This document shows, piece after piece, positions 4,761 through 62,021 of a DNA stretch of 64,000 bases. Within the stretch, counting starts at the first letter, position 1. Each line of letters begins with the position of its first letter. The translations under genes and the position numbers were made by a program. The notes under the pieces were generated by a model. The model had not been told where the DNA came from, did no database searches, and saw only the letters and a list, made by a program, of their open reading frames with translations. Source of the DNA: Euphorbia lathyris (lineage: Eukaryota > Streptophyta > Magnoliopsida > Malpighiales > Euphorbiaceae). The stretch is taken from positions 69,489,501-69,553,500 of the forward strand of contig NC_088918.1 of assembly GCF_963576675.1 (NCBI RefSeq). Direction: 5' to 3'.

Positions 4761-5629
4761 GTAAGGGGGAGAAATCGAGTTCTCCTCGGTTTAAATTCAA
4801 AGCTTGAACAATTATTTCTGCAATTTTCTTTCCTTTTTGTTTTTGTTAAATTTGGTTGTTAATTTTAATTCGCATTTCAATTACATTGTCAAGCTTTGCA
4901 CCCCATACTCTCTCTAAAAAAAAATTAATAAATTTATATAAAGATAAGGATAGGGGATGACTCATCATCCCCTTCCTTACCTTCTTCTTTCTTCCATTCT
5001 TTTTATTTTTTCTTTCCTTCTCAAGTTTTTTTCTCCTTTTCCTTTTTCCACAAAACCTAAACCTCAAATCCTCCATACTAACCCGAATTCAACAACTAAG
5101 GTATGTATTCTTACCTAATTTTGATTTCTAACATGTTTCTAGGTTTAGATTTTAGTTTAGGGGGTTAATTTTTGAGATTTGGGATAAAACCTAAGTTTTG
5201 GGCTTTTATCTTTTTTCTCAAATAACCTTTTATTTGCTTTTAATTCTTGATATTCTTGCAATATATAGTTACATTATGATCAATATGTGCTTTGGGTATG
5301 ATTTTTGTTCTTAATTTGTGAATATTTGGAGAAATTGCTCAATTTGGGTAAAACCTCCATTTTAGCTCAAAATCCAATTATTCAGTTTATAGTTGAAAAC
5401 TTGTCAATAGAATTCTACATCACACTCTTAACACATTTTGGTCACTGGGCATCGTTGATTTTGCACGAATTTGGAACTACGGGTAAATTACTTAGGGACT
5501 GAAAGTTCATAATTTTGGTCCCTAAGCTTCTAAGCTATGGTTTATGCCTAATTGTTGGTTGTTTGGGGATTTATGTTTAGGTTTGTGAAGAAATTCTAAC
5601 TAGTCCACTTGGTCTATCTCTCAGGTACG
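4761..5629 (+). other. Non-coding spacer between gag and ORF2
   Basis: About 870 bp, AT-rich, without a convincing ORF. A pyrimidine tract ending ctctcag just before ATG 5630 resembles a splice acceptor, so ORF2 may be expressed from a spliced subgenomic RNA, as suggested for the downstream ORFs of Athila-type elements. This is inference. Confidence 0.5.
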
Positions 5630-24786: not shown

Positions 24787-24802
24787 TTGCTAGGCTCCAT
24801 TA

Positions 24803-25924
24803 ATGAACACATAAGAATATGGTAGACTGGTTTTGAATATTGTAGTCGGCTATAGTCCTTGTACCATCTACCAGAGCTTTACCAGCAAACAACAGAATCT
24901 GTTTGCATGGGGGCAGACCCATCATGTCCTGGATTTTGGTCTTCGCAGTATCAATTGTGTCAATACTCTCAACTCCCAAGATGAAGCTCGTGCCAACTAA
25001 ATGTTTCACGAAAATCTGCATACCACTTCCCGGACAAAGAACAAGGTTGTCGCAAGTAGACGACTTCTGAATGTTATAGTTTGGAAGCATGCACTCATTT
25101 ACATAATGCCCTTCCTAGTTACAGTTTAAGCACTTCACTTGTGAAATGTTCATTTTTGGTTTGTTCATCGAAGATTTGTCCACTTCATGTTTCTGCTTTG
25201 GCTTTTTAGGCTCTTGATAGTCATCAAAACAACTACGCTTGTTGGCATTGTTGTTGGAACTATTTTCAACAGATGTTGTTTCAGTGAAATGTGCCTCAAC
25301 ATTAATCTTAATAGATGTGAGGCGATCCTCTTCTAACTCTAGATGGCGAGCGACATCCTCAAAAGTCCTTATACTTTCGTTATTGATTAGGTGCATCCTC
25401 ACATGGTCCCAACTGTTTTGTAAAGAACGAATAACAGCTTGAACCTTCTGCTCTTCAGTCATTTTCTGACCGGCATCACTAAGCTCATTGATCATGTTAG
25501 ACATTTCTCTTAAATGCATCTTCATGGTATGATCATGACGCATCTTATAAGTATCGAATTTGAGAGCTAGGGAACGAAGCTTTGGTAGAGACATACCTCC
25601 AAACTTGTGTTTCAATGCGATCCATAGATCCATCGCATTGTCATAAAAGTGGAATTGCTTAGCAATTTCATCATTCATCGCACTAAGTAAGATGATGCAA
25701 GCAGTGGAGTTCTTCTTCCTCCAGGCCACATAGGCCTCTAGGTCCCTTTTATGTTGGGATGTAGTACCTTCTTCAGGTTTAGCCATAACTGAACTCAAAG
25801 AATCAAGAATCTCTTGCTCTTCTAGCAAGTGCCGGATTTTCATACTCCATACCTCATAGTTTACTCCATTCAACTTGAGACCTTTGTTGAGTTCAGCAAC
25901 AATCGATTTTGATGCTGAAGTCAT
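24803..25924 (-). pseudogene. Gag-zinc knuckle-ubiquitin-like fusion, broken left copy
   Basis: The likely start is ATG 25924 ('MTSASKSIVAELNK'), just after a candidate splice acceptor (TTGTAG, 25946-25941). A copia-type Gag domain follows ('LKLNGVNYEVWSMKI', 'DLWIALKHKFGG', 'MTEEQKVQAVIRSLQ'). The knuckle reads CLNCN-stop-EGHY..EC: a TAG at 25115-25117 replaces the residue after the second Cys pair. The frame then stays open through a ubiquitin-like domain (25021-24803) beginning '[10 protein letters not shown]' and including 'VESIDTID', 'KIQD' and '[10 protein letters not shown]'. It ends 'FLCVH' without the di-glycine C-terminus. With the nonsense codon and lost tail it is probably non-functional, though some ubiquitin positions (F4, K6, Q31-D32) are closer to ubiquitin than in the right copy. 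Confidence 0.85.
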
Positions 25925-43378: not shown

Positions 43379-45345
43379 CAGATTTATTCAAACACCGTAA
43401 ATTAGATCTATTCTATCGTTTTGGATCTCCGAGCTACCCAAATTGGATCATAGCCTATAACGGAGACTCCTAAAACGACGTTTTTATTTTAAAACGTTAT
43501 TTTGAAATACTTTTAAAACTTATAATTACAACGTTTTTAATTCCCGAACTACCCTTAAATCGGATCACGGTTCGTGTTGGGATATTAAAACGAGGTTTTT
43601 ATTTCAAAACAAAACCGAACGTTTATTTAACATGCGACGAAAATTAAATAAATACGGAATAATAAATAAAACGTGATAAATAAATAACTAAATAAATAAA
43701 AAAACTATAACATAAAAATAAATAAATAAGGAAGAATAAATTAAATTCAAATAAAATAAAACGAGTCTAGTCCTCATATAATACCTTAAGATCGGTATCT
43801 GACAGTTGAAGTCGGTTGATTCCACGAATTGTGATTTTTCGGTATTTTTTGTGTTTTTGATAAAATATTCAACTTTAGAAAATTTGGATTTTTTTAGGAA
43901 AAAAAAATATTTTTCCCAAAAAATTGACTTTCTCTCTCTAAAAATGTCTAGAGTGAGAAAGCTCCAAAAATTCCCCCTCCTCTTAAATGCATGGGGATCC
44001 GTGCCTTATATAGGCACGGATCCCGGAATCTTTGGGCGACGCCCGGCTAAAGTTGGGCGTCGCCCAAAGTAGGTTGGGCGTTCGCCCAACATGCGTTGGG
44101 CGTTCGCCCAACGTCGTTGGGCGCTCGCCCAGAGGCTACCGGGCGTGCGCGCCCAGCGGCCGTCGGGCGTGCGCCCCGCGCTGTCGGGCGCACGCGCCCA
44201 ACGGACGTCAAGCGTGCGCCCCGCGCTGCCGGGCGCACGTCCAACTGTCGTCGGACACGCATCGGCTGCCGCTAGGCGTTCGCACCTCGTCGCTGAGCAC
44301 TCGCGAGCCGTCCACTCGGCGATAGCGACTCCTACTGACCTCTCGTTTTTATTTTATTTTTTTTGCGTTAAAACTCCCGGCACCAACCGCTTCAACCGTC
44401 TTGTTTCAGGTTTTCGTCACAGGTCCTCCGACTCGGTGTCTACACCTGCGTGTCCTGCCTTTCTACTATCTATTGTAATTTCTCCTCTCATCTGATTCCC
44501 TTCAATTCAATTGAAGTTTTCTTATAGTAGTATTGAAATTAATATGTAATTTCAAGGCGCCATGGAGAAGACGGAGGACCTAAAGAGAAATATGTAATAG
44601 TTAGTATTTCCTTAGGTTTGCCCTTTTATTCCGTCTCTGGCTCGACGGAATAATTTAGATGATATGTCCATAACGCCAATGTATGTGAATGTATATGTGT
44701 CTGATGTATGCTAAAGCAAATCAAGACTAAGTTAGATTATGAGACTTAAATAAAATCCCTCGTTAAAAAGTTAAGTAAATAAGCAAGTTATTAAAATCGG
44801 TTGCCCCTGCCTAATATTATAATTCAGCCGGCAGTACTGGGGGCCTTTGGGTTGTTGAGCAAACTCAAGCTCGGGGTCTTATGGTAACACCTGAATTATC
44901 GAAAGTCATTCTTTCATGAATATGGGGTAATACTTAAATTAGATTATGATAATTGGATGAGCAAACTCATGTTGTCATAAACTAATGGGCAATATGGTTG
45001 GGATTAATATGAATAGCATATTAGTTACTAATGTGGTTAGTAACCCAATAACCTAGGAGTCACATTCAAGATGTGATTGATTACATGAATCTACCTAACA
45101 AATGAGACTAGCTTGTTGAGCAAACTCAAGGCGAAATCTCAGGAGTTAGGATCCTAGCTCACTAAAGGATTTGTGAAATTCTTCGAATTAATATGGAGGG
45201 CTATTAATTTGGCAAAATAGTGGGAGCAATCTGAAATAAATTAAAAGGCCTATAATTTTAGATTGTTATACTTTAAAGCAAATGAATGACATACGTTTAC
45301 TCTTTCTCACTCTCAGGTTTTGTTTAAACACACACTCTTAAAATC
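43379..45345 (+). other. LTR-like DNA upstream of a copia gag, no gene
   Basis: A T-rich region with a TATA-like tatataggcacgg at about 44017, a GC-rich tandem array (44028-44260), then a leader with several copies of gagcaaactca (near 44859, 44958, 45119). It probably includes the 5' LTR and leader of the copia element whose gag starts at 45346. I could not find an LTR boundary or a standard primer-binding site. Confidence 0.45.
44028..44260. repeat. GC-rich array of GGGCGNNCGCCCAAC-type palindromes
   Basis: Repeats of about 23-25 bp around gggcgttcgcccaac, later degenerating to gggcgtgcgcgccc. It stands out sharply from the AT-rich surroundings. ORFs through it are compositional artefacts. 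Confidence 0.8.
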
Positions 45346-45814
45346 ATGACTAAAACCAATATGCAAAACATTCTTACCGATAACAAACTGAATGGTTCAA
45401 ACTTCACCGACTGGTTTCGTAACCTCAAAATTGTTTTGAAGTTCAAGAAAATTGGGTATGTACTTGATACACCGATACCCCCTGTCCCTGAAGATGATGC
45501 TCCCATCGAGGAAATTGATGCTTATCAGAAGCACAAGGCTGATGACGATCATGCCGGATGCATCATACTTGCATCGATGACATCGGAATTACAAAGGCAA
45601 CATGAGGAGATGAATGCCAATTCCATCATCATGCACCTAAAGGAATTGTTTGGGAAACAAACCAGGTGCGAACGCTACGAGATATCCAAGCTGTTATATC
45701 GTTGCAGGATGCAAGAGGGCACATCAGTCATGACACATTGTGTCAAGATGATTGGCTACATTACCAAACTTTCTAGTATTGGATTTGCGATGGATAACGA
45801 ATTAAGTGTTGAGG
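45346..45814 (+). pseudogene. Ty1/copia gag N-terminal part
   Basis: Starts 'MTKTNMQNILTDNKLNGSNF' and contains the UBN2/copia-gag pattern: 'LNGSNFTDWFRNLKIVLK', 'ADDDHAGCIILASMTSELQ', 'LKELFGKQTRCERYEISK', 'CRMQEGTSVMTHCVKMIGYI'. The domain is the structural Gag of copia elements. The frame is good up to 'NELSVE' and then breaks into unrelated LINE sequence, so zinc knuckle and pol are missing. Upstream DNA is its probable leader/LTR. Confidence 0.85.
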
Positions 45815-46056
45815 AGGCATTGGGAAGTCACTGTAGTTCATCCCCTTCGGGAGGGTAGTAAAGCAGCAGATTGGTTGGCAAAATTCGCAGGATCGTTGAG
45901 CTTAGGCTATCACGAGTGTGATAATCCCCCTGCAGGCCTGATTGACTTACTTCATGCAGATAGTTCAGGCTCAGGGACTCTTAGGAGAACTCGAGTCTAA
46001 GTTTTTCCTTTTGTTTCTTGTTTTGGGGCCTAGCGCTCTTCCTACTTAGCAAAAAA
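45815..46056 (+). pseudogene. 5'-truncated LINE tail fused to copia gag
   Basis: The frame 'HWEVTVVHPLREGSKAADWL' followed by 'LAKFAGSLSLGYHECDNPP' matches the C-terminal part of a plant LINE RNase H domain. It ends at a stop after 'RRTRV', with a short 3' UTR and an A9 run at 46048-46056. It is a typical 5'-truncated LINE insertion; copia gag does not resume after the tail, so a deletion followed or accompanied it. Confidence 0.75.
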
Positions 46057-46852
46057 AAATTCGTAGGTTTGAAAAAATATTATAAATCAAATGTATAAAT
46101 TAAGAATTAAAAGTTGAAAATAATTTAAAATTTATTTATTTTTTAAATTGTTCGTCTGAGACTTTAATCTGGACACTAAGATGGTATTTGATAAAACTTA
46201 AAATTAAGTGCTTAATATTATAAATGATTAAAGTATTAAATGATACAAACGTTCAATAAATATTAAAAATAACTACTGAATTTAAAAATAATAGTTGATA
46301 ATGTTCAACTTAAAATTTTAAGTTAAATTTAATAGGTATAATTGTTATGAATAAATTAGTATAATTATTGTAACTCTTTATATTTTAATGTTGTAAATTT
46401 TTATTCATTAAGTTGGTAACTCTTTATCTCTTAATATTTGTAACTCTATAATTTATGTCCGTATCTAACTTTTATGTTCATAGAGAACAAGTAAAAAGAC
46501 AAGTGAAATACAAGTAATTTATGTTCGTATGTAGCTTATATGTCTATAAATATGGTTTCTTTCATATAACAGAGAACAAGTAAAAAGACAAGTGAAGTTA
46601 CCTCTATTGTTCTTATTATATTGCATATTATCTTCCTTATTTTATAGCAATAATTTTATTTTCTAATTTATAAATTTTTGACCTCAATTCATAAATCATA
46701 AATCCTTAAAAATATATATCTTAAACTCCTAATTCATAAACATAATTCTTAAACTATATATATATAAAAAAAACAATTATTTACTTAATTTGGTATTTTT
46801 AAAATTAGTATTTGATATAGTTGTAAATAACTTTTATGTGTAAATTTTTCTA
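46057..46852. other. AT-rich DNA, no gene
   Basis: The only structure seen is a direct repeat of about 25 bp (agagaacaagtaaaaagaca) at 46482 and 46571. Confidence 0.4.
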
Positions 46853-46859
46853 TCCCATT

Positions 46860-47115
46860 CTTTCATGTCATCCGGAAAATATCAATTCACATTTGGACAA
46901 ATGTATTGTGATCTCACCGAATAAATAAAATAATGAGACATCTTATATTACAAATGTCAAAATATGTGTTTCTAATAATTTCCCCACTGAAGCACCACTT
47001 ACCATATCAATTTATGGGGAAATTATTGGAAGTACCCGGTTCTCATCTCAAATGGAGGACTTTCTATACATATTTTGACACGTGTAACATGGACTCATAA
47101 TTATTATAAAAGGTC
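46860..47115. mobile_element. MITE pair A (two ends head to head)
   Basis: A left partial MITE in reverse orientation (contains caattcacatttggacaaat and ends at about 46980) is joined by a 37-bp linker (ccccactgaagcaccactta and following) to a second MITE start (gaaattattggaagtacccg) at about 47019. The same arrangement recurs at 48068-48367. Confidence 0.6.
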
Positions 47116-47675
47116 TCACTATTTTAAGAGGGAATTACAAAATGGACTCATAATTATTATAAAAGTGAAAAAATATAAAAAATATATGTAAAAACAGAAT
47201 AAGAAAAAAGAGAAAAAGAAAAAGAAAGAGTCAAAACAGATGTGGAAATATGAGCACTTTTTTAGTAAACACGACAAGTGATTTTAACGGTAAAATTGGG
47301 CATCCATTCGAATATACTTTGATTCGATTCCAAGACTGTTTGAAAGTTCAAGATCTTAGCTTTCAAATGACATCTTATAGACATCAAACAGACTCGTATT
47401 GAAGCTAGGATACTCTGTCAAATATTGCTGCTACCTAGAATTTCGAGAAAATTTCAGCAAACCCATCATATACAAGTTTCATGCCTTCAATCCCTATTAT
47501 TTGGCTTCAAGCACACCTATTATCTTCCCTTAACTTGTGGAAGGTAATGGACATGGTGGAGGAGAAAAACAAAGGTGGTTAAAGGTAGTTGGTTATCTAG
47601 AGAGCTATAAATAATAAAGCTAACTTTCTTCATTCCGATTTGGTAACCCCTCCAACCACTAACAATAAATTAACA

Positions 47676-48062
47676 TGTTGGGTAAATTTCGCAAGTGCAC
47701 GGTTTCGCTTGTAATAATAAAAGATATCGATCTCATGGAGAACGTTTTTTTTATTAAAATTACTGTTCTGATTAAATTCATTTTCTTGAGGTTTATAAAA
47801 AATCGTTAATCGTTTAAATGGTTTCTAATTCTAATTATGATTATAATTACAAATACAATTTATAGAGATTAAATTTAGATTACGACTTATTCCAATGTTA
47901 ATTTATACTAAGCAAAAACACAATTTTAAACTTTGGTTTATTTAAAGTAGATGTAATAAATTACCAATTGATTCAATTTAAAGGAATTGAACTGTTATCA
48001 TTTTTTACTTTCGGTCTAAGACTGAAAACCTTAATCAAATTCGGAATTTAAACCCGATTATT
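47676..48062 (-). repeat. LTR 3'-end fragment related to the solo LTR at 56847
   Basis: The minus-strand end reads gatcgatatcttttattatt, acaagcgaaaccgtgcactt, gcgaaatttacccaaca, closely matching the last 70 bp of the solo LTR at 56847-58326. Upstream similarity is weak and the 5' end is not seen. Confidence 0.6.
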
Positions 48063-48067
48063 CGAAT

Positions 48068-48367
48068 TATCGCAATGACCAAATGTCATCCGTGTATAGA
48101 ATGTCATTCGTTTGATATGGATAACCTGATGCTTCCAATAATTTCACCACTGAAGCACCACTTACTACGTCAATTTATAGGGAAATTATTGGAAGTACCC
48201 GGTTCTCATGTCAAATGGAGAACCTTCTATACATATTCTAACACATGTAAGATGGATCCATAATTATTATAAGAGGTCTCACTATTTTAATTATTAAGTG
48301 TGGTCACAATACACATGTCCAAATATGAATTGGAGATTCTCGAACTGACATGAAAGACCGGGTATTT
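48068..48367. mobile_element. MITE pair B, right member complete
   Basis: A MITE end (ataacctgatgcttccaata) is followed by the same linker as pair A and by a complete 175-bp MITE at 48193-48367. That MITE has terminal inverted repeats aagtacccggttctcatgtca and, read inward from the right, aatacccggtctttcatgtca. Confidence 0.6.
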
Positions 48368-48397
48368 AATATAAAAACTCCAGTTTATAAGTAGATT

Positions 48398-48900
48398 GCT
48401 AAATATCGTCCATTTTTTACTAGTTACCGCCCTAATTGAGACTTTTTTTTTTGCCATTTTCATAATTTTGATCCAAAACTGAAAATTCTCTCTTCAAAAT
48501 CACAAACCCGAACAACAATAATTGAAATTATGAAAATAATTGATGCATAACCACCCGAGAACCCCTGAAATGGATAAAAATATTAAAATTTATGTTTTTT
48601 TATCAAAAAATCATGAAATAATGCATGACAATTGAACAATTTTGCATTTTTTGTCATAAAAATTTACGATTTTGCATTTTTCGTCACAAAAAATTTGACG
48701 ATTTTGCTTAATTTTTTTGTGCCTAGGTGGATGCTTCACCCGCATGTCTAATGGTTAGGTGGATGCTCCATCCGCCTAGGCAAAAAAAAAAAAAAAATCT
48801 CCCAAAAATCCAAAATTTCAGTTTTGAATTTTTTTTTTATGAAAATGGTAAAATTGTCCAAATGAGAGCGGTGATAAGTAATTTGAGGACGGTAAATAGA
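48398..48900. mobile_element. Foldback-type element with about 90-bp inverted arms
   Basis: The left arm (48398-48490: gctaaatatcgtcc, ttaccgccctaattgagac, gccattttcataatttt) is the imperfect reverse complement of the right arm (48815-48900). A second, inner inverted repeat lies at 48720-48783 (tgcctaggtggatg / catccgcctaggca). No coding DNA and no clear target duplication. Confidence 0.6.
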
Positions 48901-49555
48901 AATACCCATTTATAACCATGTCATCTTTATCCTATTTTGTTCATCAATTTTCATTAATTAAAATTCATATATCATTTGATAGATAAGAAAAGTGGAAATA
49001 CAACCAAAGAATAAGAAATAAAACCTACACAAATACAAACTATGTCTAATACAAAATCCATATAAGTACATGTAATTCAATCTTCATCGTTTAAATTCTT
49101 CTGAATCTTCGGATCTGAATCTTTTTCTTTGCAACCACGTGGATGTAGTGATCTACGGATAAAATCTTACTAAATCAGAAAATAAACAACTGATGCAATT
49201 TAAGCGAATTTAAGCGGATTAAGAGATCCGATAAAATATATAAAATCTAACTAAAATAAATTTATTGAACAACGAGAAAAAACAAAAAAACAAAAAAAAA
49301 CATCTTTAGTTATAATTTTATAATTTTACTGTTTAAAATTTTCCATTTATAGAACTCGACGAACAAAATATTTGAAATATTCTTGCAAATATGACAACTA
49401 CCAAGTCAATAGGAATAAATCAAATAGAACAATTGATGTATCAGTATCAATTCATTGAGCTATCAGATAAGGGTTAGAAAACAATTACTCTGAATCTAAC
49501 ATATTCCTTTTCCTAAAATTGTCTCACTATTAACGGGTGTCTCGATGTCGATGAG

Positions 49556-49990
49556 TGTTATTATGTCTCGTTTGTCTAAATGGATCCGGTTATGGAACAA
49601 GTTCAGGGAGAGGATGTGGTGGAACAAGTTCGATCTCCCTAGCGGAGTATGGTGGGGAGACTGTTAAAAAACAGAACTATCAGAATTCCGTTCATGAAAA
49701 AATACATTTGGAGATCTTTGGCGACCGTCTAAAGGGTCTATGTATCACGGAAGTGGGAGTTAATGAATTTCAGTTTGAGTTTTTTCACCGGTTGGAGAGA
49801 GATCGGGTGGTTCAAAGGCATGTGGACGTATGAACAACATTTGATGCTTATGGCAAAATTAAGCGTGGATACAAATCCTTTTTGGAAGTCCCACTAGAGA
49901 CAACGGACTTTTGGATTCAAGTTCATGATTTGTTTTGAGGTTTCATCTCAGCTAAGATCGCTTAAAATATTAGTGATTTTATTCAGAGGC
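49556..49990 (+). pseudogene. LINE ORF1 relic (DUF4283-like)
   Basis: The stretch 'GDRLKGLCITEVGVNEFQFEF', a stop, then 'YKSFLEVPLETTDFWIQVHDL' and another stop follow the DUF4283-type pattern of LINE ORF1 proteins (compare 22288-22785). Several stops and frame shifts; the upstream gly-rich part is in other frames. Similarity ends near 49990. Confidence 0.65.
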
Positions 49991-51445
49991 AGACACAACC
50001 CGGAGCCCGAGGAGGCCGAAGCCCCCCGGTCTCCGGCACCGTCCATGAAGAACAGTGGTTTCGTTTTCGGTAGCCCCTAAGAAAGTATATGGATATATTA
50101 AACAAGACGTAAACATTTAACAAAAGAATGAGTTAGTACGATTGGTATAAGGAGTGAATAGTTTCTACCTAACCAAAAGATCTTAATTTCAAAACACAAG
50201 TATTGCATTTTGCAACTATCTAATAATTGTTTCACATTATTATCTAATTTTATTATTTTCCCCATCATTTTATTACCTAATTTCTCATTTTATGGGTGAC
50301 AACGGATAGGATACCTGTAGGTAGTGGCAATCTCAAACCCTTACACGTTTATTTTTTAATATCCGTACTCGTCCCTTACCCTAACGTGTATATTTTTTCA
50401 TCCTGTACTCGTTCCATTTAATTTAAGAATCAATAAATAAAATAAAAAATATTACAAATTTAACAAAGTATAAGTTTAATAAATCATCCATCTAAAAATT
50501 GAATAAATTGAAACTTAGGAGTTCAAATATCACATCTTACATCTAAAAAACAATAATATTTTTCAATATGTGTTCACGAGTATCATGGCAGGTAACGGGT
50601 ACCGAGTATCATGGCCTAGTTGAAATAGAAAGGCAAGGTTTGAAGTAGAAAGAAACCTATGTGTTCACGGAGGTCCGATGAGCGATGAGTGAAGGTCCGA
50701 CGAGCGATGAGCGGATGTCCGACGAGCGGACGTCCGAAGAGCGATGAGCGACCAGGAGGCTTTGAGGTGGTGAGGAATTTGAATGGAAGATGTTGGCTAG
50801 GGTTTACGTATTGGAAGGGGGTCGTAGCAAATTCTCTTTTTTTTCGTTTAAGATGGATTGGTGGATTAATTGGCTGGGTTATTATAACCCAGTCCATATA
50901 ACTAAAATATTTTTTTTTTATAACCCATCCTACCCATGGAACCCTGTTATAAGTCATCTATGCATATTCCATGGATTGGATGGATGGAGAATGGATGGGT
51001 TATAATAACCCATCCATATTTGAACACCCCTAAGCCTGGGGATAGTGCTGAGTATCCATTGCCATCTCGACCCTTAGGGCTGCATATATCAAAATCGTTT
51101 TTGAAAATAAAAAATTTAGTTTCATAATAAATATAATACTAAACAACTTTAATTCTTGAAATTTTTCATTTGGAAATCCTTAACCGTCATTTTTATAGTG
51201 TTAAATTAAAATATCGTCTTTAGCAAAACGAAAACCTCATTACTCATTTGGATAAAAAAAAAACAAATAATTCCACCGTTAACAAAATATAAAAGCACAT
51301 AAGTTTTTTTTTTTAATCGTAAAAAATAAAGTAAGCATAAAATGTACCTAAATACATATTTTCATTAATGAAATTAAAAGGTACTGTAATTTCTAACTTT
51401 GAAGTTCATTGTAAAGTATTCCAACATGCAAATACGTGTTCAGAA
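49991..51445. other. Repeats and MITE-like DNA, no gene
   Basis: 50671-50752 is a minisatellite of ggtccgacgagcgatgagcg-like units. 50870-51015 contains palindromes (gggttattataaccca; ggatgggttataataaccca) typical of small DNA transposons. 50280-50610 resembles a degraded dispersed repeat. Nothing coding is supported. Confidence 0.45.
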
Positions 51446-51449
51446 AGTT

Positions 51450-53800
51450 GAACTGAATAAGATAATTACGGTTGACTCCAACATCCCAACCCTATATTAG
51501 AGGTGTAGAACCAGAAATAGACAATTAAAATCACTAACCAAACAAGAAACGATGTTATCAGGTGAATTCAGGGGAAACATTTCCACCCTAATGTAAAGTT
51601 TATGGTGCATTAATGTTCCTATGACCAGCCAGAACTTTTCCACCAATTATTCTTATTCCCATATCAATGGTAGAGTGGTTTGGAATGTTGTACTCGGCTA
51701 TAGTCCTCGTACCATCTGCCAGACATTTACCATCAAACATCAGCCCCTGCTGGTCTGGGAGTATGCCAATTATAGCATGGATTTTGGCCTTCAAAGTATC
51801 AATTGTGTCAATGCACTCAACTTCCAAGATGAAGCTCATGCCAACTAAAGGTTGCACGACAATCTGCATACCACTTCCCGGACTAAGAACAAGGTTGTCG
51901 CGAGTAGACGACTTCTGAATGTTATAGTTTGGAAGCATGCACTCATTTGCATAATGCCCTTCCTGGTTACAGTCTAAGCACTTCACCCGTGAAATGTTCA
52001 CTTTTTGTTTCTTCATCGACGATTTGTTCCCTTCATGTTTCTGCTTCGGCTTTTTAGGCGCTTGAGCCTGCTCTTTGTCATAGTCATCGAAACAACTACG
52101 CTTGTTGGCATTGTTGTTGGAACTAGTTTCAATGAAATGTGACTCAACATTGATCTTAATAGATGTGAGGCGATCCTCTTCTAACTCTAGATGGCGAGCC
52201 GCATCCTCAAAAGTCCTTATACTTTCGTTATGGATTAGGTGCATCTTCATATGGTCCCAACTGTTTCTTAAAGAACGAATAACAGCTTGGACCTTCTGCT
52301 CTTCGGTCATTTTCTGACCAGCATCACTAAGCTCATTGATCATCTTAGACATTTCTCTTAAATGCATCTTCATAGTATGCTCAGAATGCATCTTATAAGT
52401 ATCGAATTTGAGAGCCAGGGAACGAAGCTTTGTTAGAGACGTACCTCCATACTTGTGTTTCAATGCAATCCATAGATCCATCGCATTGTCATAAATGTGG
52501 AATTGCTTAGCAATAACATCATCCATCGCACTAAGAAGGATGATGCGAGCAGTGGAGTTCTTCTTCCTCCAAGCCACATACGCCTCTAGGTCCTTTTTAT
52601 GTTGGGATGTAGTACCTTCCTCGGGTGCATCCATAACCGAACTCAAAGAATCAAGAACCTTTTGCTCTCCTAACAAGTCCCGGATTTTCATACTCCATAC
52701 CTCATAGTTTACTCCATTCAACTTGAGATCTTTATTGAGTTCAGCAACAATCGATTTTGATGCTGAAGTCATTGATAATCCTAATGATCTACAATAGAAC
52801 ATAGTATTAGTTGCAGGTAATAAGAGCAGAAAACTAACTTGTAGAAATACATACAAATACATAACAATAACTCATTAAATCAAAACAGTAAGTAGCAAGT
52901 AAAACATAACTTCAAGTTGCTTCAGCAATCAAAATTCACTTCGTTTGATCAATGGAGGACTTGATTTATAGGACTACATAAGAAATACATATAATAGGAT
53001 TAATACATTGAATAGATCTTTGTACTTAGTTTAGATTATTCGATTCCCTCCTGAATTTTAGAGATGTCTTATTAGTATCGGAACTTACTCACAATGGTCT
53101 ACTATTTCCTTGAACTTGTTTAAAATAATATATGCTTCAACTTATCTAAATCATATGCCACATTGATTGACATCTCCAAAATTCAGAGGACCAATTAGGT
53201 ATCTCAACAAGAACAGAGATCCTAATGTATTACGCCTATATAATATCAATTTCAGATACATTGTCATTGCCAAGTAGCATAGCGGACCCCTAAGAAGCCT
53301 TAATGGATACTAATAAAATCTCAAATTCTCGTATACATAATTCACATAAAAAGGGGAACTCATTGAATAACAAATTAGGGATAAAATACAAATTTAGAAG
53401 AACGTATTTAGCCTCTACAACCTTTAAAGGACTGTGCAATTTCAAAGCATATTAGCTTCAAATTTCATTTCTAATACAATGCCAATAATTTAAACAAGAC
53501 GCAGCATAAATATAAACCTGACGGCAACTATGTGAATTCTAAGACAAATATCATTGAATAACAGAACATTTTTCAGTAATTTTAATTCCCAGAAAAAGAA
53601 GAAGAGAGATTCAGAGTATCTGACCAGTGGGCTCCGTTCTGGCCTCCTTTGAAGCTAAGCCGATATTCTTCTCCGATAAGCCGGAACAGCGAATCCGATC
53701 ACCTACAGTGGAGCAGCGACTCTGATGCAGCGGCGGAGGAGGGAGAAGTAATCGGGAATTAAATTGTGGTTGAGTCGTCTAGAGATCGACTGTAAGGAGA
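51450..53800 (-). repeat. Right copy of the duplicated Gag-ubiquitin locus
   Basis: Colinear with 24090-27200 over the 3' flank, coding region, upstream intron-like DNA and the block at 53600-53760. It lacks the 520-bp candidate intron found at 24264-24786. Direct orientation, about 27 kb apart. Confidence 0.85.
51600..52772 (-). CDS. Gag-zinc knuckle-ubiquitin-like fusion protein (intact)
   Basis: A 390-aa ORF from ATG 52772 ('MTSASKSIVAELNKDLKLNG'); the start lies 18 bp downstream of a candidate splice acceptor shared with the left copy. Residues about 15-225 form a copia-type Gag domain ('NGVNYEVWSMKIRDLLGEQ', 'DLWIALKHKYGGTSL', 'KMTEEQKVQAVIRSLRNSWD'). A Lys-rich linker and a CCHC knuckle CLDCNQEGHYANEC (about 267-280) follow. 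Residues 302-378 are ubiquitin-like: 'MQIVVQPLVG', 'LEVECIDTIDTLKAKI', 'DQQGLMFDGKCLADGT', 'YNIPNHST', ending in di-glycine plus 12 more residues. Positions matching ubiquitin K27, K29 and K48 are kept; K6, K11, K33 and K63 are not. I44 is Met and V70 is Gly, so the binding patch is altered. There is one extra residue at position 54. The 12-residue tail could be removed by a deubiquitinase or make the domain a fixed fusion. No protease, integrase or reverse transcriptase follows, and I see no LTRs. It may be a domesticated Gag gene. Confidence 0.85.
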   Translation of the reverse strand: MTSASKSIVAELNKDLKLNGVNYEVWSMKIRDLLGEQKVLDSLSSVMDAPEEGTTSQHKKDLEAYVAWRKKNSTARIILLSAMDDVIAKQFHIYDNAMDLWIALKHKYGGTSLTKLRSLALKFDTYKMHSEHTMKMHLREMSKMINELSDAGQKMTEEQKVQAVIRSLRNSWDHMKMHLIHNESIRTFEDAARHLELEEDRLTSIKINVESHFIETSSNNNANKRSCFDDYDKEQAQAPKKPKQKHEGNKSSMKKQKVNISRVKCLDCNQEGHYANECMLPNYNIQKSSTRDNLVLSPGSGMQIVVQPLVGMSFILEVECIDTIDTLKAKIHAIIGILPDQQGLMFDGKCLADGTRTIAEYNIPNHSTIDMGIRIIGGKVLAGHRNINAP

Positions 53801-53989
53801 AAGAAAAACAAGCAAATTAAGAGGAAGCGGGAATTACAAAATCGAGAAGAGGGAAAGTGAAAGAAGCATCTCCTTTTCAATACCCGTAGGGCTGTTTGTT
53901 AGAAGTTGTATAGGAGGTCTGATAAAAAGAACGAAATAAGTTAGTATTCTAATAAATAAGGATACTTACATAAGTTATTCCTCTCCTAA

Positions 53990-54969
53990 AGGTTTAAATG
54001 CGTCGTTGGTCACTGAACTTATATGGTTGTCTTAAAATGGTTACTCAATTTCAATTTATCTCAATAAAGTCACTCAACTTTGAGTTTTATCTTAATTAGT
54101 TCATTCCGTCGATTTTAATGGTTAAAACGCATCGAAATAATAACATGGATGCAATGTTGTAAAAGACGCTAGACACTAATCGGGCGGAGAGGACCCTTAC
54201 TGATTAATCGGCGATTAATTGGATTTGTATTTTTTATATTTATTTATTTTTTATTAAATAAAGTATTATATAAATACCATTAATATATGAATTATACTAT
54301 GTAAAAATAATAATATAAAATATTTAGGATAGAAAAACATACATATTTTAATATTATTTATATTAATGTCCATAAAAAAAAAATAACAAATAGATCAATA
54401 AAATAATATTTATAACAAAATGTGTCAAAATAAAATAAAATTAATATTCTTAAAAATAAATTTAATAGTTTAAGGTTTTCTTTTAAATTTTTTTTTAAAA
54501 TTAAAAAAGTTAGACATAAAATTTAAGGATCAATTTTTTCAAAAAAACCGCCTAGGACCGCCTAGACAGTCAAAAATCGGTCAACCGATTTATACCGCCC
54601 GATTAGTAAAAATCGGGATAGTGTTCTAAAAGTCCCCGCCTTGGCCGATTTTTAGAATACTGCATGGATGACACGTCAACATAAGTTAATTCAAATCTCT
54701 GACCGAAACGAAATATGACAGTCGCATGTCGAGTATTTTTATTTTAGTTTTTTTCCATAAAAATAATTGACACGTGATAGCCATGTGGCGCATATGTGGA
54801 TGTCATGTGTCATTTCGTTTAAAAATATGAGTTGTCTAATATTGACGTATCACTTATGATGATTTTTAATCATTAAAATCGTTATAGTGACTTAATTGAG
54901 ACAAATTGAAGTTGAGTGACCATTTTGAGATAATCATGTAAGTTCAGTGACCAATGGTGCATTTAACCC
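53990..54969. mobile_element. MULE-type MITE with long inverted repeats
   Basis: Arms of about 100 bp: the left one starts aggtttaaatgcgtcgttgg and runs through cactgaacttatatg; the right one, read inward, starts gggttaaatgcaccattggt and runs through cactgaacttacatg. Flanks ctctcctaa (53981-53989) and ctcttgtaa (54970-54978) look like a 9-bp target duplication with two changes. It is split by the hAT-type element at 54152-54662; without that it is about 460 bp. No transposase. Confidence 0.75.
54152..54662. mobile_element. Non-autonomous hAT-type element
   Basis: 511 bp with terminal inverted repeats CAATGTTGTAAAA and, from the right, CAGTATTCTAAAA. It is flanked by a perfect 8-bp duplication catggatg (54144-54151 and 54663-54670), the hAT signature. 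No transposase ORF. It is inserted in the MULE-type MITE. Confidence 0.85.
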
Positions 54970-55090
54970 CTCTTGTAAATCAGTAAAAACTTTTCACTCA
55001 TCTCAATATTCAGACGTCCCTTCCCCTTCTAGGTTTTATTCTTGTGCCGCCATTCCTCTTTTTCTGCACCTCCTTTTCTGCTGTCAATTA

Positions 55091-55672
55091 GAGCATCTCC
55101 AACAGCGGCTTAATTTGGCTCTTAAATTAAAATTTGAGGAGGGAGAGTTAAAAATCATCTCCAACAGCCTCTTAATGGCTCCTCAAATCACTAAAAGTCT
55201 CTTAATCCTCTCTATTAATAGAGAGCATCTCTCCACCTCTTAGTACCTCCTAACTTTATTTTTTTATTAATAATTTATTATTGAGGTATCTCTCTCCTCA
55301 CATTATTGGTACGGAAAATTTTAAGGTACTCCTGAAGTAATACTCCCTACCACTCAATCCATGACACGTGTATATGTATTTCTCTTTCCACTAATCATAC
55401 CCATGTAGAGAGATTAAAAAAACGATTTTGATTGGCCGGAAGTCTTATTCCCGGAGTACTCTAAAATTTTTCCTATTGGTATATAGTCTAATCCATAACA
55501 ATAAATAATAATTTTAATAATAAAATAATAAATAAGGAGTGGATATAGAGAGTATTGTTGGAGATGATATATCTTAATTACTCTTAAATCACTCTTAATT
55601 ACTCTTAAATCACTAAGAGTCAATTATTTATATTATTTTTAGAGAGTGACGTAAGAGTTTTTAGAGATGCTC
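55091..55672. mobile_element. Harbinger-type MITE
   Basis: Ends gagcatctccaacagc and, read from the right, gagcatctctaaaaact, flanked by tta on both sides (55088-55090 and 55673-55675), the usual PIF/Harbinger target. The interior repeats the ctccaacagc and cctcttaat motifs. It contains a nested element at 55313-55473. Related remnant at 23846-24090. Confidence 0.75.
55313..55473. mobile_element. 161-bp MITE nested in the Harbinger-type MITE
   Basis: Terminal inverted repeats ggaaaattttaaggtactcc and, from the right, ggaaaaattttagagtactcc. Flanked by tattggta at 55304-55311 and 55474-55481 (8 identical bases; 9 with one mismatch), so a hAT- or MULE-type target duplication. Confidence 0.8.
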
Positions 55673-56846
55673 TTAATGATTACATACATAAATATTTAAT
55701 TTTAGTGAAAAGATTGGCTTAACCATTATTGCTACTCAAATTGAAATATTTATTCCTCTTTCATTCAGTGAACATAATAAATTACAAATCATTTGAATTT
55801 CTTTTTGTATTACAAGTGATTTGAATTTTTTTTTCCCTGTTTGGCCTGTTTTGTAGAGTTATTCATTAAAAAACTATATTAATTAGATTTGCGCAGAAAT
55901 CTCTAATTCCTTCCATTGAGAAAAATCTCATTTGCTAGAATAACGAATTTGTCACTTTTAGGATTCAATTTGGATTGAACCTTGAATAGCTGCGTCCAGA
56001 ATTTGATTGACATGGTGGTGACTGGCGGAGAACGAACGGAACAGTTCCGGTGGTAAATACCGTAAAAAAGGACTTTTTTTTTTTATCAGTCCGTAAAAAA
56101 GGACTTATATGTGAGAAAAACCGCTATTTTTTATTTGGTAGGATGAAAAACCGCTATTTTTAATTCTATTTTAACTATCTGTTTTTAAAACAGATATGCT
56201 TATTTAATTAGTTATGGCACACCACATTATACGTGACATGATTTCTCTTGTTTGGGAGATAGGAGAGTGAGACAAGGAAAGGATAAGCCTCTTATCCCAC
56301 TAAAGTTATACCTAGAGGTAGAGATGCAAACGGGGAGGGGCGGAGTGGGGAATGCATTTCCCATCCCCATCCTTGACTAGTCGGGGATTCCCCGTCCCCA
56401 TCCCCGCGAGTTAGAAGGAGAAAAATTTGTACCCATCCCCGTCCCTACGGAGATTTTCATCCCCGTTTAAAAACACTTTTTCCTTATTCCACATCCCCGT
56501 TCCCGCAGGGAATCGCCATTTATATTTAAAACAAAAGTAGTATATGTTTCTTTTCTCTCTCTTATCAAATTCTAGGTTTTGTTCGAAAGAATGGCAGAGA
56601 TGCTACGGGCGCAAACGAGACTTAGTAGTTCGCAAACTATTCGAGCTCGGCTTGGTGAAAGCTCGATCAAATATCGGCTCGATAGGGCTCGACTCGAGTT
56701 CGGGATCGGCTCGAGTACTAACGAGCTGAGTCCGAGCTTCCTTAGGTTCGGTTCGAAAGCTCGCGAGCAAGCTAGATTATTAATTACTATATATATTTCA
56801 TTATATATATTTAATATATATTTCATTGGTTATTTTTAATTTTCAT
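55673..56846. other. Degraded repeats, no gene
   Basis: 56325-56520 is a C/G-run-rich block (ccccgtccccatccccgcga and similar). 56640-56780 is rich in gctcg/ctcga words, and similar words resume at 58640-58680 beyond the solo LTR, suggesting one older repeat split by it. Short duplications (ccgtaaaaaaggactt; gaaaaaccgctattttt) lie at 56067-56165. Confidence 0.45.
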
Positions 56847-58326
56847 TGTTAAGCCCAAAATATACCTAAAATATCATCTATATTTACATCAGTTTTACTA
56901 TGAATTTGTGTTGTTTATATCTATTTAGAGTACTTTTATGTCCGAATATGTTTCTTTCATGCAAGGTACCTAAATGTTTGGTAAAATCCAAATAGGAGCA
57001 AAAAAGGTCAAAAACGAAGGAAAAACCCTACGGAAAGAGTCAAAGACGAAGAAAATAAAAACGCACCGAAACGATGACGGAACAGAGTCGAGACCGGGAA
57101 AAAACACCCGTGTCGCGATCGAGATTCCCTATTCTCGGTCGCGACACGCGTCCTTCTGACATCTCTCTCCTTTGTTTTCGAAGACCAAAACCTACCCCCC
57201 CTAATCTCGGTAGAGATTTTCCATTCTCGGTAACTTCAAATTTTCTGTCAGCACAACATACACATGTTCGATTTCAAAGAAACGCGTCCGTTCGAGTGGA
57301 TAAAAACGTCTCTTCACAGCAGACACGTCCCCTAGACACGACTCTTCAACATCTATAAATAAAGAGTTCAGAGTTGTGAAATATAGAATTGAGAGTTAAG
57401 ATTTAGTACAGAATTTATGCAGAAATTCTGAGTCAAACGATTCAGAGTTAGAAGTTCGATTTTTTAAAAACGATATGATGTACACACATTGTTTACTCAT
57501 TAATTACAAACACAGTAGTATTTAGATTTAGATTAAGATCTCTTCAGACTAGTTTACATTTTGGTAGTAGAAGAACCATCTCTATTCCGAAGATTCAGCG
57601 AGAAGATTAAGTAGCGGATTCGACCCCGGAGCCTGACAAACTCTAACGAGGTTTGAGGAAAGGATTGACGACCCGGAACTCTCATGTCGTTTTGAATGCT
57701 TCCATGTTTTTTATTCTCTGTAAACTTGTATCAAATTCATACTTCATCTAATAAAGTTCATGCAATTCAATATATTTTTATATAGCACTTCTGTAAATGA
57801 TCCGAAGTGAATTCTGGTGTTTTCATTAAAACGTAGTTAAATTCAACATCTTTACAAGGAAACTTTGTTGAACACTTATGTTGAACACTTAGGCAAATTC
57901 ATTCTTTGAGAATTAATTTGGTTAAGGTAACAATCTAACCCGACCGTAGGAGGATTGTCTGCGGTTCAAAGCCTTTTAATTGAAGGAGTTTACGTTATTA
58001 CATTTTCTCAATTTGTACAAAGTTTAAAGTTGTTTTCTTTGCTTAATGCAAACGAACACAATAAATCTCTTGTTTTAAACACTAAACGTTTCTGTTTTGT
58101 AATTCATATTCAAAACAGAATTGATTTCTAACATTCTACATATTCTAATCTAATTCTTATTCAATCAATCTCAAACCAATTTCAAACAACGATTATCTAT
58201 TTTTATAAAACTTAATTCGTATTTAAACTACACATAAATAAATTTTTGTTGAAAAACGTTCCCTGTGGGATCGATATCTTTTTATTACTACAAGCGAAAC
58301 CGTGCACTTGCGGAAATCGCTCAACA
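56847..58326 (+). repeat. Solo LTR with perfect 5-bp target duplication
   Basis: 1,480 bp starting TGTTAAGCCCAAAATA and ending CGCTCAACA, so TG...CA with TGTT/AACA ends. The 5-mer ttcat is present at 56842-56846 and 58327-58331. A TATA box (tataaat, 57354-57360) gives plus orientation. No internal region remains. The last 70 bp resemble the fragment at 47676. Confidence 0.85.
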
Positions 58327-58727
58327 TTCATCCCAATTAACAGCTCAAATAAGATTTAACCCATAAAAAAATGACACAAAAAGCTTAGACATTTGAGTCT
58401 TTAGCTAGACAATTAGGTTTTGATAAGGAATAAAATACATTACAAACTTTAATATATATGTCATTATTTGAACTTTTTCTCCGAGATTGTGTTTTCCGAT
58501 CACAAGTACCATATACTGTTTTGGAATCTCAACAATGACATGATTTTTTTTCTTTATAAATATTTTAAACTCATATGGAGTATGTTATAAGGATTTTCTA
58601 TTTTTGACGCTACTTATTCTATACATGTATGATGAATTTGGTTAAAGCTCGTTAGAAGCTCGATAAAAGCTCGGCACGATCAAAGCTTTGTACAGAAATG
58701 CTTACTTGTGTCACACTTTTTCAGGTT

Positions 58728-59754: not shown

Positions 59755-62021
59755 TTTTTTATCTCCCTATCATGGTAAGCACCCCAAGATACTTGGGAAA
59801 AGCCTGAGTTTCTTTGACCCCAAGCCATTAGAGATATTGTTCTTTGCACCCTCTTTCACCTTGGAGCTAAAAATGACTTCAGATTTTTCATAATTGATGC
59901 TTTGACCCGAAGCACGTTCGTATGTGTGGAGGATATGCTTGATTGCCTCACATTCTGATCCGTTAGCTTTGAAGAGCACCATTGAATCATCTGCAAAAAG
60001 CAAGTGTGAAACCATAGGAGCTGTAGGACTAACCTTAATACCATGTAGGATGCCGTCATCTTCAGATTGCTTAATCAATGCTGATAATCCTTCCGCACAT
60101 AGGAGAAACAAATAGGTAGATAGCGGATCTCCCCGATGGAGACCGCGACTTGGTTTAATGTAACCTTTAGGCACCCTATTTATAAGGAAAGAGAAAGAAA
60201 ATGAAGACATACATCGGACGATAGTACTTTTGAATTGGTCCGGGAATCCCATAGTTTTCATGACTTGCTCGATAAAAACCCACTCAACTCTGTCATAAGC
60301 TTTACTCATATCCAATTTCACGGCACACATCCCGTCTTTACCCCGACATCTATACTTCATCGAGTGGAACATTTCGAATGCGATGAGGGCATTGTCTATG
60401 ATTAGTCTCCTCGGGATGAAAGCACTCTAGGTTGGGCTTATTATTGAGTCGAGTATAGGTTTGATGCGGTTTGCTAGAACTTTGGCGATGAGTTTGTATA
60501 GAACATTACAGAGGCTAATCAGGCGAAGGTCTTTCATGGTGGTAGGGGATTTGATCTTCGGTATGAGAGTGATGAAAGTAGGGTTAAGATCAAGGGGAAT
60601 TCATTACCTTGTAATATGCCGAGGATAAGTGAGCAGACATCATCACCAACTATGTCCCAAAAGGAGGAATAGAAGAGGGCAGGCATCCTATCCGGCCCAG
60701 GAGCTTTGAGGGGGTGCATTTGTTCAAGAGCCCTTTTTATCTCATCCTTTGAGAAGGGGGAGGATAAGTCGTCTACCGCTTCAGTTGAGATACGACAGTG
60801 GATGGATCTAGTAACGATTTTAGGGTTCACAGATGTTCTAGAGGTAAAGAGACTGTCATAAAAGGAGATCACGATGTCCTGAATATCTTCTTCTTTGTCA
60901 CACTATATCCCGTCCACGTTCTTTAGCCGAGAGAGGCAGTTTGTTTTCCTCCTAGAAGAAGATTTGTTATGAAAATTTTTGTATCCCGGTCACCTTCTGA
61001 TAACCAGAATGCCCGAGAACGTTGACGCTACATAATTTCTTCTTTGTTTTGCAGGGAGAGGATATGCTTGGTTAGCCGCGCGATCTCAACCTCGACCTAT
61101 GGACTTGTGGGTAGCATCTGAAGAGAGGCCAATCTTTCTGTGCATCGTCGAATGGATTTGCCGATATTGCATATGACATCTCTATTCCACTTAGTGAGTT
61201 GTTGAGCACAAGACAAAAGCTTGGAGGCAATATTGGGACTGCTATCACCCGAGGCAGTACCCCATGCTTTTTCAATAAGTGGTCTGCAACTAGTTTCTTT
61301 TGTCCATATTGCTTCGAATCAGAACGGGCATTTTCTAGTTTTCTTAATTACGTCTGTGTCCAAAAGTAGGGGAGAGTGGTTAGATATGTACCTTGCTAAG
61401 TGGTGGACGATGGAGTTAACAAAGCGATCCAACCTCTCTTTAATGCTACCCGTTCCTTGACGTCCATTTTCCCAAGTAAATTTTGCACCTTTGTATCCCA
61501 TGTCGAGAAGCTCTTAGTCCTCACGAGAAGTTCGAAAGGCCCTTAGCATAAAGTCACATGGATGACGGCCCCCCTTGCTTTTCAAAGGAATACAAAATCT
61601 CATTGAAATCCTCGAAGCAGATCCAATGTAGTGTTTCCCTAGAACAGATATCTCGTAGCAACGCCCAAGTCCAAAACTTGTTACCTGATTTCGACCAACC
61701 GTAGACCCCCGTGCCTCTCCAACACATGATGTTATCAGAATTGTGTACCCTAAAGTGGATGCAGTGATCCGAGTATCCGAGGATGCTGACTTGTAGCTCT
61801 CGTTTCCACATCAGTATCAAACCGCCTGACCGACCTACTGCTTTTACTGAAAACAAATGGCACCCAAAAAACCTCCTGCGAATCACATCCATACTATGAA
61901 GACTTAGTCTGGTTTCCATGAGAAAGACTAAGTCTGGGCAGTGATGACTCATAGTTTTAGCCAAGGTTTGGACTGTTCAGGGGTTGCCCAGCCCCTAAAC
62001 ATTCCAGCTGAGAACCTTCAT
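59755..62021 (-). pseudogene. LINE (L1-type) ORF2: endonuclease and reverse transcriptase, broken
   Basis: ORF2 starts at ATG 62021, overlapping the ORF1 stop as ATGA, and meets stops within the first 15 codons. The endonuclease (61964-61554) shows 'DLVFLMETRLSLHSM', 'GRSGGLILMWKRELQV' and 'HWICFEDFNEIL', in which the usual Gly-Asp-Phe-Asn has Glu for Gly. The reverse transcriptase side shows 'PLKAPGPDRMPALFYSSFWD' (60872-60534), 'KLDMSKAYDRVEW', 'GLHRGDPLSTYLF' and the catalytic 'LLFADDSMVLF' (60372-59770). A frameshift near 59775 precedes 'YLGVLTMIGR', after which similarity ends at about 59755, so the C-terminal part and RNase H are lost. Many stops; non-functional. Confidence 0.88.

What the first reader, a model, noticed from the sequence alone, without database searches (positions are those of the whole stretch)
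51600..52772. Intact retroelement Gag fused to a zinc knuckle and a ubiquitin-like domain
The sequence shows one 390-codon ORF with a copia-type Gag domain, a classic C-x2-C-x4-H-x4-C knuckle and a C-terminal 77-residue ubiquitin-like domain ending in di-glycine plus 12 residues. No pol, integrase or LTR accompanies it. Retroelement Gag proteins normally do not carry ubiquitin, and ubiquitin fusions normally put ubiquitin first (ribosomal and poly-ubiquitin). A Gag that could be processed to a free C-terminal Gly-Gly, or that tags particles with a ubiquitin-like surface, would be a new arrangement. Domestication of Gag as a host gene is my inference.
Basis: partly seen in the sequence, partly recalled or inferred. 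Interest (0 to 1): 0.88.

Follow-up and report, generated by a model that had tools for sequence, protein, structure and literature searches.

The report
Tandem plant Gag–ubiquitin fusion genes
In the caper spurge genome a capsid (Gag) gene from a jumping element became a resident gene, picked up a ubiquitin-like tail, and multiplied into a local family whose capsid part is kept under selection; what it does is unproven.

Summary
The ORF is real (minus strand, 51600-52772, 390 aa): copia-type Gag, CCHC knuckle, ubiquitin fold ending Gly-Gly plus 12 residues. It is not a lone oddity. The window is Euphorbia lathyris chromosome C9; thirteen Gag-ubiquitin genes lie in a 308-kb array on the minus strand, with two Gag-only relatives nearby. 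No fusion was listed elsewhere in this genome or in other species' proteins. The Gag tree fits one fusion event; no LTRs were found. Gag is constrained (omega 0.44 over 15 copies, p 5e-11), against 0.93 in 20 dispersed retroelement Gags; 60 of 91 dispersed matches carry stops, against 1 (or 2) of 15 here. The ubiquitin part evolves at omega about 1.15, but 13 of 13 copies keep its hydrophobic core and no stop up to residue 67 (neutral simulation P = 0.003). Gly-Gly survives in 2 of 13, so processed or conjugated ubiquitin is unlikely as the family function. Best reading: a domesticated Gag family with an integral ubiquitin-like tail, plausibly antagonising a related copia element. Expression and function are untested.

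The parts
51600..52772 (-). Gag-ubiquitin fusion gene, 390 aa plus stop (copy L019 of the family)
52167..52664 (-). copia-type Gag domain, residues 37-202
   Evidence: PF14223 E 5.9e-22; block-mean pLDDT 83-93 over residues 121-200 of the model
51939..51980 (-). CCHC zinc knuckle, residues 265-278
   Evidence: sequence; zf-CCHC 17.6 bits, below its cut-off of 20.8
51870..51920 (-). junction, residues 285-301, resembling the tail of a preceding polyubiquitin unit
   Evidence: including it raises the match to a polyubiquitin chain from 54.5 to 60.7-64.2 bits; clade C copies mostly read LVLRPRSG-(T)MQIFVK against [14 protein letters not shown] in the genome's polyubiquitin
51639..51869 (-). ubiquitin-like domain, residues 302-378, ending Gly-Gly
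   Evidence: PF00240; of the 50 Foldseek PDB matches listed, all but two titles name ubiquitin or a variant of it
51603..51638 (-). 12-residue C-terminal tail
   Evidence: present in 2 of 13 copies, L016 and L019
52789..52790 (-). probable 3' splice site (AG) 16 nt before the ATG
   Evidence: AG|ATCATT in 15 of 15 family members; similar TTGTAG|ATCA in 6 of 7 retroelement leaders read; use in splicing is inferred
53511..53875 (-). conserved 5' block, probable promoter/5' UTR exon; invariant GGTCAGATA with a possible donor GT at 53623-53624
   Evidence: 11 of 15 copies aligned; use in splicing is inferred
24800..25924 (-). second family copy in the window (L018), TAG at 25115-25117 in the knuckle

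Best explanation
This is one member of a young host gene family made by domesticating the Gag of a copia-type LTR retroelement. A resident Gag gene with a 5' leader intron (intron inferred) fused, probably once, at its 3' end to a piece of polyubiquitin running from the tail of one unit into the next, and was then multiplied by local DNA duplication. Selection keeps the Gag part and keeps the ubiquitin fold as an integral, non-conjugated C-terminal module whose surface is free to change or is driven to change. Most likely action, inferred: the Gag part co-assembles with the capsid protein of related copia elements and spoils particle assembly, and the ubiquitin-like tail either blocks the lattice sterically or routes mixed particles to the proteasome or autophagy. 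Shown: the gene family and its array, selection on Gag, retained ubiquitin core and frame. Supported by tree and shared features: a single fusion, spread by DNA duplication. Inferred: expression, co-assembly, degradation. I put the domesticated-family part at about 0.85 and the restriction mechanism at about 0.4.
For: Array of 15 genes on C9:69.28-69.73 Mb, 13 with ubiquitin and all 13 on the minus strand. The 15 form one clade (100/99), the 13 fusions one clade inside it (97/91), and all 13 have an extra residue near ubiquitin position 53-54 (seen by eye). The window copy shares flanks on both sides with the 5 other clade A copies, and a 5' flank with clades B and C; no LTR pair. Codon omega: Gag 0.439 over 15 copies (p 5e-11), 0.518 over 13 (p 1e-5), 0.259 in clade C (p 2e-4). 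Control: 20 stop-free dispersed Gags omega 0.93; stops in 60 of 91 dispersed matches against 1 of 15 (Fisher p 1.6e-5), or 2 of 15 if stops past L017's own end are counted (p 3e-4). Ubiquitin: 14 of 14 core positions hydrophobic in 13 of 13 copies; summed pairwise omega core 0.71 and surface 1.16 in clade A, 0.58 and 0.90 in A+B; no stop before residue 67 in 13 of 13 (L018's stop lies upstream, in the knuckle) where a neutral simulation expects 8.1 copies hit, P(0) 0.003. A related LTR family, 20 sampled stop-free Gags of which lie 1.7-5.4% apart, gives a possible target. Precedents for Gag-derived antagonists: DRT2 (PMC10951436) and RTL8 (PMC11684626), abstracts and outlines seen.
Against: No expression, binding or restriction data. 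The ubiquitin part as a whole has omega not different from 1 (1.15, p 0.43) and above that of Gag (p 3e-6), as expected if it were passively carried. The linker and knuckle of clade A also do not differ from 1 (1.085). Within clade A alone the absence of stops is weak (P 0.09). The knuckle is gone in 7 of 13 fusions and interrupted in L018; Gly-Gly is gone in 11 of 13. Only one species has it so far. The dispersed matches are at most 60% identical to the finding's Gag, which may be too far for co-assembly. Recombination between copies (L016 is mosaic) can distort omega. The p-values come from a fixed tree and a five-value grid of kappa.
Confidence: 0.45

Rival explanations
1. Domesticated Gag whose ubiquitin tail is a passenger: selection acts on the capsid part alone and the tail is a tolerated extension left from the fusion event.
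For: Omega near 1 over the ubiquitin part, significantly above Gag; loss of Gly-Gly in 11 of 13 and variable C-terminal ends; weak stop statistic within clade A alone (P 0.09).
Against: A passenger should be cut by stops: 0 of 13 copies stop before ubiquitin residue 67, P 0.003 under neutrality; the hydrophobic core is complete in 13 of 13.
Confidence: 0.25
2. Gag-ubiquitin serves a cellular role unrelated to retroelements, such as RNA-carrying capsids, with the ubiquitin-like tail as a docking module.
For: Gag constraint; 6 of 13 fusions have knuckle sequence, one of them with a stop inside it; domesticated Gags with cellular roles exist (PEG10, PMC10076021, abstract and outline seen; Arc, named in a search listing).
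Against: Copy-number turnover, loss of the knuckle in 7 of 13 and fast surface change fit a conflict better than a housekeeping role; no direct data either way.
Confidence: 0.15
3. Still-mobile non-autonomous Gag element, such as a TR-GAG-type element, that captured ubiquitin.
For: Gag kin are retroelement proteins; TR-GAG elements are reported in plants (search listing).
Against: The 13 fusions are in one 308-kb array in one orientation, with shared flanks (both sides within clade A, 5' side with B and C); no bracketing repeats around the window copy (the other copies were not scanned for LTRs).
Confidence: 0.04
4. Decaying chance fusion without function; gene models are predicted only.
For: One copy broken, single species, no expression data seen, omega near 1 in the ubiquitin part. 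4 of the 15 genes match a listed public protein letter for letter.
Against: Gag omega 0.44 with p 5e-11 and mostly intact frames at mean nucleotide distance 0.177, while dispersed Gag matches, 20 of which lie at 0.032, are often broken.
Confidence: 0.11

Closest known systems
DRT2, a domesticated Ty1' Gag that restricts Ty1' in yeast (PMC10951436, abstract and outline seen)
   Same: Gag of a Ty1 (copia-superfamily) element turned into a resident gene while related elements persist
   Different: DRT2 holds the capsid C-terminal domain; here a longer Gag plus a ubiquitin fold in a tandem array, and restriction is untested
RTL8/PEG10 pair of mammals (PMC11684626, abstract and outline seen)
   Same: Gag-derived host gene; RTL8 enters PEG10 particles and lowers their abundance
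   Different: Mammalian Mart-family genes, not a plant copia-type Gag; the abstracts mention no ubiquitin fusion (PEG10 is instead regulated by the shuttle factor UBQLN2, PMC10076021 abstract)
Polyubiquitin and ubiquitin-ribosomal fusion genes
   Same: Likely sequence source of the C-terminal part; a head-to-tail unit junction seems remembered in [14 protein letters not shown]
   Different: There ubiquitin comes first and ends in a cleavable Gly-Gly (established knowledge); here it is C-terminal and Gly-Gly is mostly lost
Proteins with integral ubiquitin-like domains (ubiquilin/Rad23 type; recalled, apart from the UBQLN2 abstracts)
   Same: Non-conjugated ubiquitin fold in a larger protein
   Different: In those the domain is N-terminal and tied to the proteasome (recalled); no such binding is shown here

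Membership tests
Copia-type LTR retrotransposon (as a mobile element) | copia-type Gag | tested here: met
   PF14223 5.9e-22
Copia-type LTR retrotransposon (as a mobile element) | flanking LTRs | tested here: not met
   no bracketing direct repeats in 46000-58500; only the window copy was scanned
Copia-type LTR retrotransposon (as a mobile element) | pol | tested here: not met
Copia-type LTR retrotransposon (as a mobile element) | dispersed insertions | tested here: not met
   the 13 fusions found are in one array (lists are lower bounds)
Domesticated Gag gene | coding sequence under purifying selection | tested here: met
   Gag omega 0.439, p 5e-11; dispersed control 0.93
Domesticated Gag gene | kept across species | tested here: inconclusive
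   of 53 proteins, 4 carry the fusion, all E. lathyris; other Euphorbia genomes could not be searched
Domesticated Gag gene | expressed | not testable with these tools
   no RNA-seq available; listed public protein models exist
Gag-derived restriction factor | related retroelement present as target | tested here: met
   dispersed Gag copies with similar leader; 3 of 7 upstream stretches hold a primer-binding-like TTGGTATCAGAGC
Gag-derived restriction factor | blocks particles or mobility | not testable with these tools
   needs experiment
Ubiquitin precursor fusion | N-terminal ubiquitin with cleavable LRGG | tested here: not met
   ubiquitin is C-terminal; IIGG in 2 of 13, Gly-Gly absent in 11 of 13
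Integral ubiquitin-like domain protein | ubiquitin fold inside a larger protein | tested here: met
   13 of 13 over the PF00240 cut-off; model of the finding matches ubiquitin structures; L018's lies behind a stop
Integral ubiquitin-like domain protein | binds proteasome or other ubiquitin receptor | not testable with these tools
   needs experiment; the Leu8-Ile44-Val70 patch is altered

The most novel reading that the evidence does not exclude
A plant lineage built an anti-retroelement protein family by fusing a copia capsid to a ubiquitin fold: the capsid part homes to copia particles, the ubiquitin-like part marks or jams them, and the tail's surface diversifies in an arms race while its core is preserved.
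Probability: 0.25. Interest if true: 0.87.

Novelty: new variant of a known kind. Interest (0 to 1): 0.62.

Why it matters
Domesticated Gags are known, but a Gag with a C-terminal ubiquitin fold, kept in 13 tandem copies with selection on the capsid part, was not seen in the paper searches made here (listings; one search found no paper). It offers a natural test of whether a capsid plus a ubiquitin-type module can evolve into retroelement control in plants, and a series of duplicates (knuckle lost, ubiquitin rearranged, Gly-Gly lost) for watching a new gene being shaped.

Tried and rejected
Origin of the ubiquitin part from the divergent tandem-ubiquitin genes of this genome (C9:17.9-18.3 Mb and elsewhere): I noticed shared motifs (one extra residue, LKAKI), but the tree puts the fused domains outside the unit-2 clade (100/99), so polyubiquitin is the simpler source; the tool warned of long branches there (unit-2 rows and clade B), and the exact donor is open. 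Retrotransposition as the spreading route: disfavoured because clade A copies share flanks on both sides and clades B and C share the 5' flank, including the probable intron region. A second species: the whole-protein, ubiquitin-region and profile searches gave none; the ubiquitin-region search missed a known fusion (P0004), and no search listed a clade C protein, so sensitivity is limited. I first took P0001-P0003 for possible orthologs in another species; the genome search showed they are neighbours in the same array. Fold of the full model: mean pLDDT 65.4; only the ubiquitin part gave the matches listed.

Rows left out: of 91 dispersed matches, 20 were fetched, all flagged stop-free, so the omega control leans towards intact copies. 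The Gag tree used these 20, the 15 family members and 9 of the 16 non-fusion proteins then held; the tree used 18 of 49 non-fusion proteins and 4 of the 20 dispersed Gags. Upstream stretches were read for 7 dispersed copies. The structure alignment left out P0016 (19 of 20 proteins). One search aligned 11 of 15 copies (L012, L014, L022, L023 left out). The 60 of 91 was read by hand from the table and recounted from that reading; the totals are lower bounds. One search failed to read omega; one search replaces it; the omega = 1 runs used an unmatched kappa and are not cited. The simulations drop some proposed substitutions and cover the whole tail; one search is the one relied on.

Full report
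What is there. The window holds one open frame on the minus strand, 51600-52772, of 390 codons. Pfam reads a copia-type Gag (residues 37-202, E 5.9e-22) and a ubiquitin domain (311-373, E 7.5e-13); the CCHC knuckle is present by letter but scores below its cut-off. Residues 302-378 align to ubiquitin over its whole length and end in IIGG, followed by 12 residues. The predicted model is moderate overall (mean pLDDT 65.4), with block means of 71-86 over residues 301-370; of the 50 PDB matches listed, all but two titles name ubiquitin or a variant of it.

Where it comes from. The window lies at C9:69489501-69553500 of a 1.02-Gb genome. C9 is 81,185,342 bases, the same as the contig of four public Euphorbia lathyris proteins, and the ORFs of L017, L016, L021 and L009 equal P0001-P0004 letter for letter. 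So the window is Euphorbia lathyris, and those four proteins are neighbours in one array, not orthologs. The other 11 family members, the finding's own included, match none of the 53 proteins held letter for letter.

The family. Fifteen related genes lie at C9:69.28-69.73 Mb. Thirteen, all on the minus strand within 308 kb, carry the ubiquitin part, and all 13 pass the PF00240 cut-off in a separate search. Clade A (L016-L021, with the finding as L019) has Gag, knuckle and ubiquitin; L018, the second copy in the window, has a TAG in the knuckle. Clade B (L009, L010) and clade C (L011-L015) lack the knuckle; clade C has an insertion inside the ubiquitin part that looks like a partial unit duplication. 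L022 and L023, on the plus strand about 130 kb away, are Gag plus knuckle only. The fusion was not listed elsewhere: the 91 dispersed Gag matches end between query residues 224 and 302, and the protein searches found the fusion only in E. lathyris (4 of 20 proteins; 3 of 3, which missed P0004; 4 of 53).

How it arose. The Gag tree joins the 15 genes (100/99) and, within them, the 13 fusions (97/91), with L022/L023 outside; clade C sits with L017 and L019 (98/98), so the knuckle was probably lost twice. Most clade C copies read LVLRPRSG-(T)MQIFVK across the junction and clade A NIQKSSTRDNLVLxPGSG-MQI or close to it; the genome's own polyubiquitin reads [23 protein letters not shown]. Adding the pre-unit tail raised the match to a polyubiquitin chain from 54.5 to 60.7-64.2 bits. 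The captured piece thus seems to run from the end of one ubiquitin unit into the next. The fused domains group away from the second units of the divergent tandem-ubiquitin genes (100/99), but branches are long and the donor is not resolved. AG|ATCATT precedes the ATG in 15 of 15 members, and the dispersed elements have TTGTAG|ATCA there in 6 of 7 stretches read, three of which also hold a primer-binding-like motif about 1.4-1.5 kb upstream, so the leader probably came with the Gag. A 5' block shared by 11 aligned copies holds an invariant GGTCAGATA, a possible donor site; splicing is inferred. The window copy shares flanks on both sides with the 5 other clade A copies and a 5' flank with clades B and C, while L022 and L023 share only 81 and 22 bases before the ATG, apart from one 32-base match in L022; no LTR pair was found around it. 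Spread by DNA duplication is the simplest reading. L016 is a mosaic: its Gag groups with L018/L020/L021 (99/96) and its ubiquitin part with L017/L019 (98/92).

Selection. Codon models (GY+F3X4) give Gag omega 0.439 for 15 copies (p 5e-11 against 1), 0.518 for the 13 fusions (p 1e-5), 0.519 for clade A (p 0.017) and 0.259 for clade C (p 2e-4). The linker and knuckle of clade A (1.085) and the ubiquitin part (1.15 for 13 copies, 1.25 for clade A, 0.62 for clade C) do not differ from 1. The ubiquitin part rejects the Gag value (p 3e-6). The two window copies compared alone give 0.41 for Gag and 0.90 for ubiquitin. A control set of 20 stop-free dispersed Gags has omega 0.93 at mean nucleotide distance 0.032; 60 of 91 dispersed matches have stops against 1 of 15 family members (2 of 15 if the stops past L017's own end are counted), although the family is more diverged (mean 0.177).

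The ubiquitin part is not plain junk. Fourteen of 14 tested core positions are hydrophobic (A, V, I, L, M, F, Y, W or C) in 13 of 13 copies; summed pairwise omega is 0.71 core and 1.16 surface in clade A, 0.58 and 0.90 in A+B, 0 and 0.58 in C (pairs are not independent, and the core list is recalled). No copy stops before ubiquitin residue 67, where neutral simulation expects 8.1 of 13 hit, P(0) 0.003; within clade A alone the figure is only 0.09, within A+B 0.005. Gly-Gly survives in 2 of 13; Lys48 in 11 of 13; Lys63 in none; the Leu8-Ile44-Val70 patch is changed in various ways. This fits an integral ubiquitin-like module, not a conjugated or released ubiquitin.

Mechanism. From established knowledge, Gag proteins self-assemble and Gag-derived proteins can poison particles; the abstracts of DRT2 and RTL8 give two cases. 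I infer that these proteins could join capsids of the related copia family, whose 20 sampled stop-free Gags lie 1.7-5.4% apart, and that the ubiquitin-like tail blocks assembly or recruits degradation. Nothing here tests that. The clearest competing view is a constrained Gag with a tolerated tail.

Novelty. Among papers listed I saw no Gag-ubiquitin fusion (titles and abstract openings only; one search returned none), and a review of extra ORFs in plant LTR elements, PMC7264820, has no occurrence of 'ubiquitin' in its main text (passages). I class it as a new variant of domesticated Gag genes. Limits: one species, no expression data, recombination among copies, and genome searches whose totals are lower bounds.

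Noticed in passing
window 24800-25924 (-) and downstream to about 24240: Second Gag-ubiquitin copy with a premature TAG in the knuckle and, after its stop codon, an apparent intron of about 0.55 kb (AGCAAG|GTATGT ... TTGCAG) that the finding's copy lacks; L020 and L021 have the same AGCAAGGTATGT.
   Followed up: partly
L011-L015, clade C: Ubiquitin part with an insertion that looks like a partial duplication of a ubiquitin unit, plus an 11-residue insertion in Gag; five copies, some nearly identical.
   Followed up: partly
L051-L055, L058-L061 (C9:17.95-18.04, 1.48 and 2.31 Mb; C4:51.4 Mb; C3:42.2 Mb): Divergent tandem-ubiquitin genes: one near-canonical unit followed by a strongly diverged second unit, several with a charged tail.
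   Followed up: partly
L024-L043: Most of the 20 dispersed Gags read share a short ...VPKVHYTNSC stretch after the knuckle, where the match to the query ends; open frames in the table vary widely, and whether this Gag is an ORF of its own was not checked.
   Followed up: no
window 5600-6472 (+) and 39641-40912 (-): Related long ORFs with MGRKGKGK/MGRKGKAK near their starts, on opposite strands, near other long repeat-like ORFs; unidentified.
   Followed up: no
window 45328-45858 (+): Weakly similar copia-type Gag fragment (26% identity to P0010 over 166 aa).
   Followed up: no
window 59770-60902 and 61554-61976 (-): Pieces that look like a LINE reverse transcriptase and endonuclease, by eye.
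   Followed up: no
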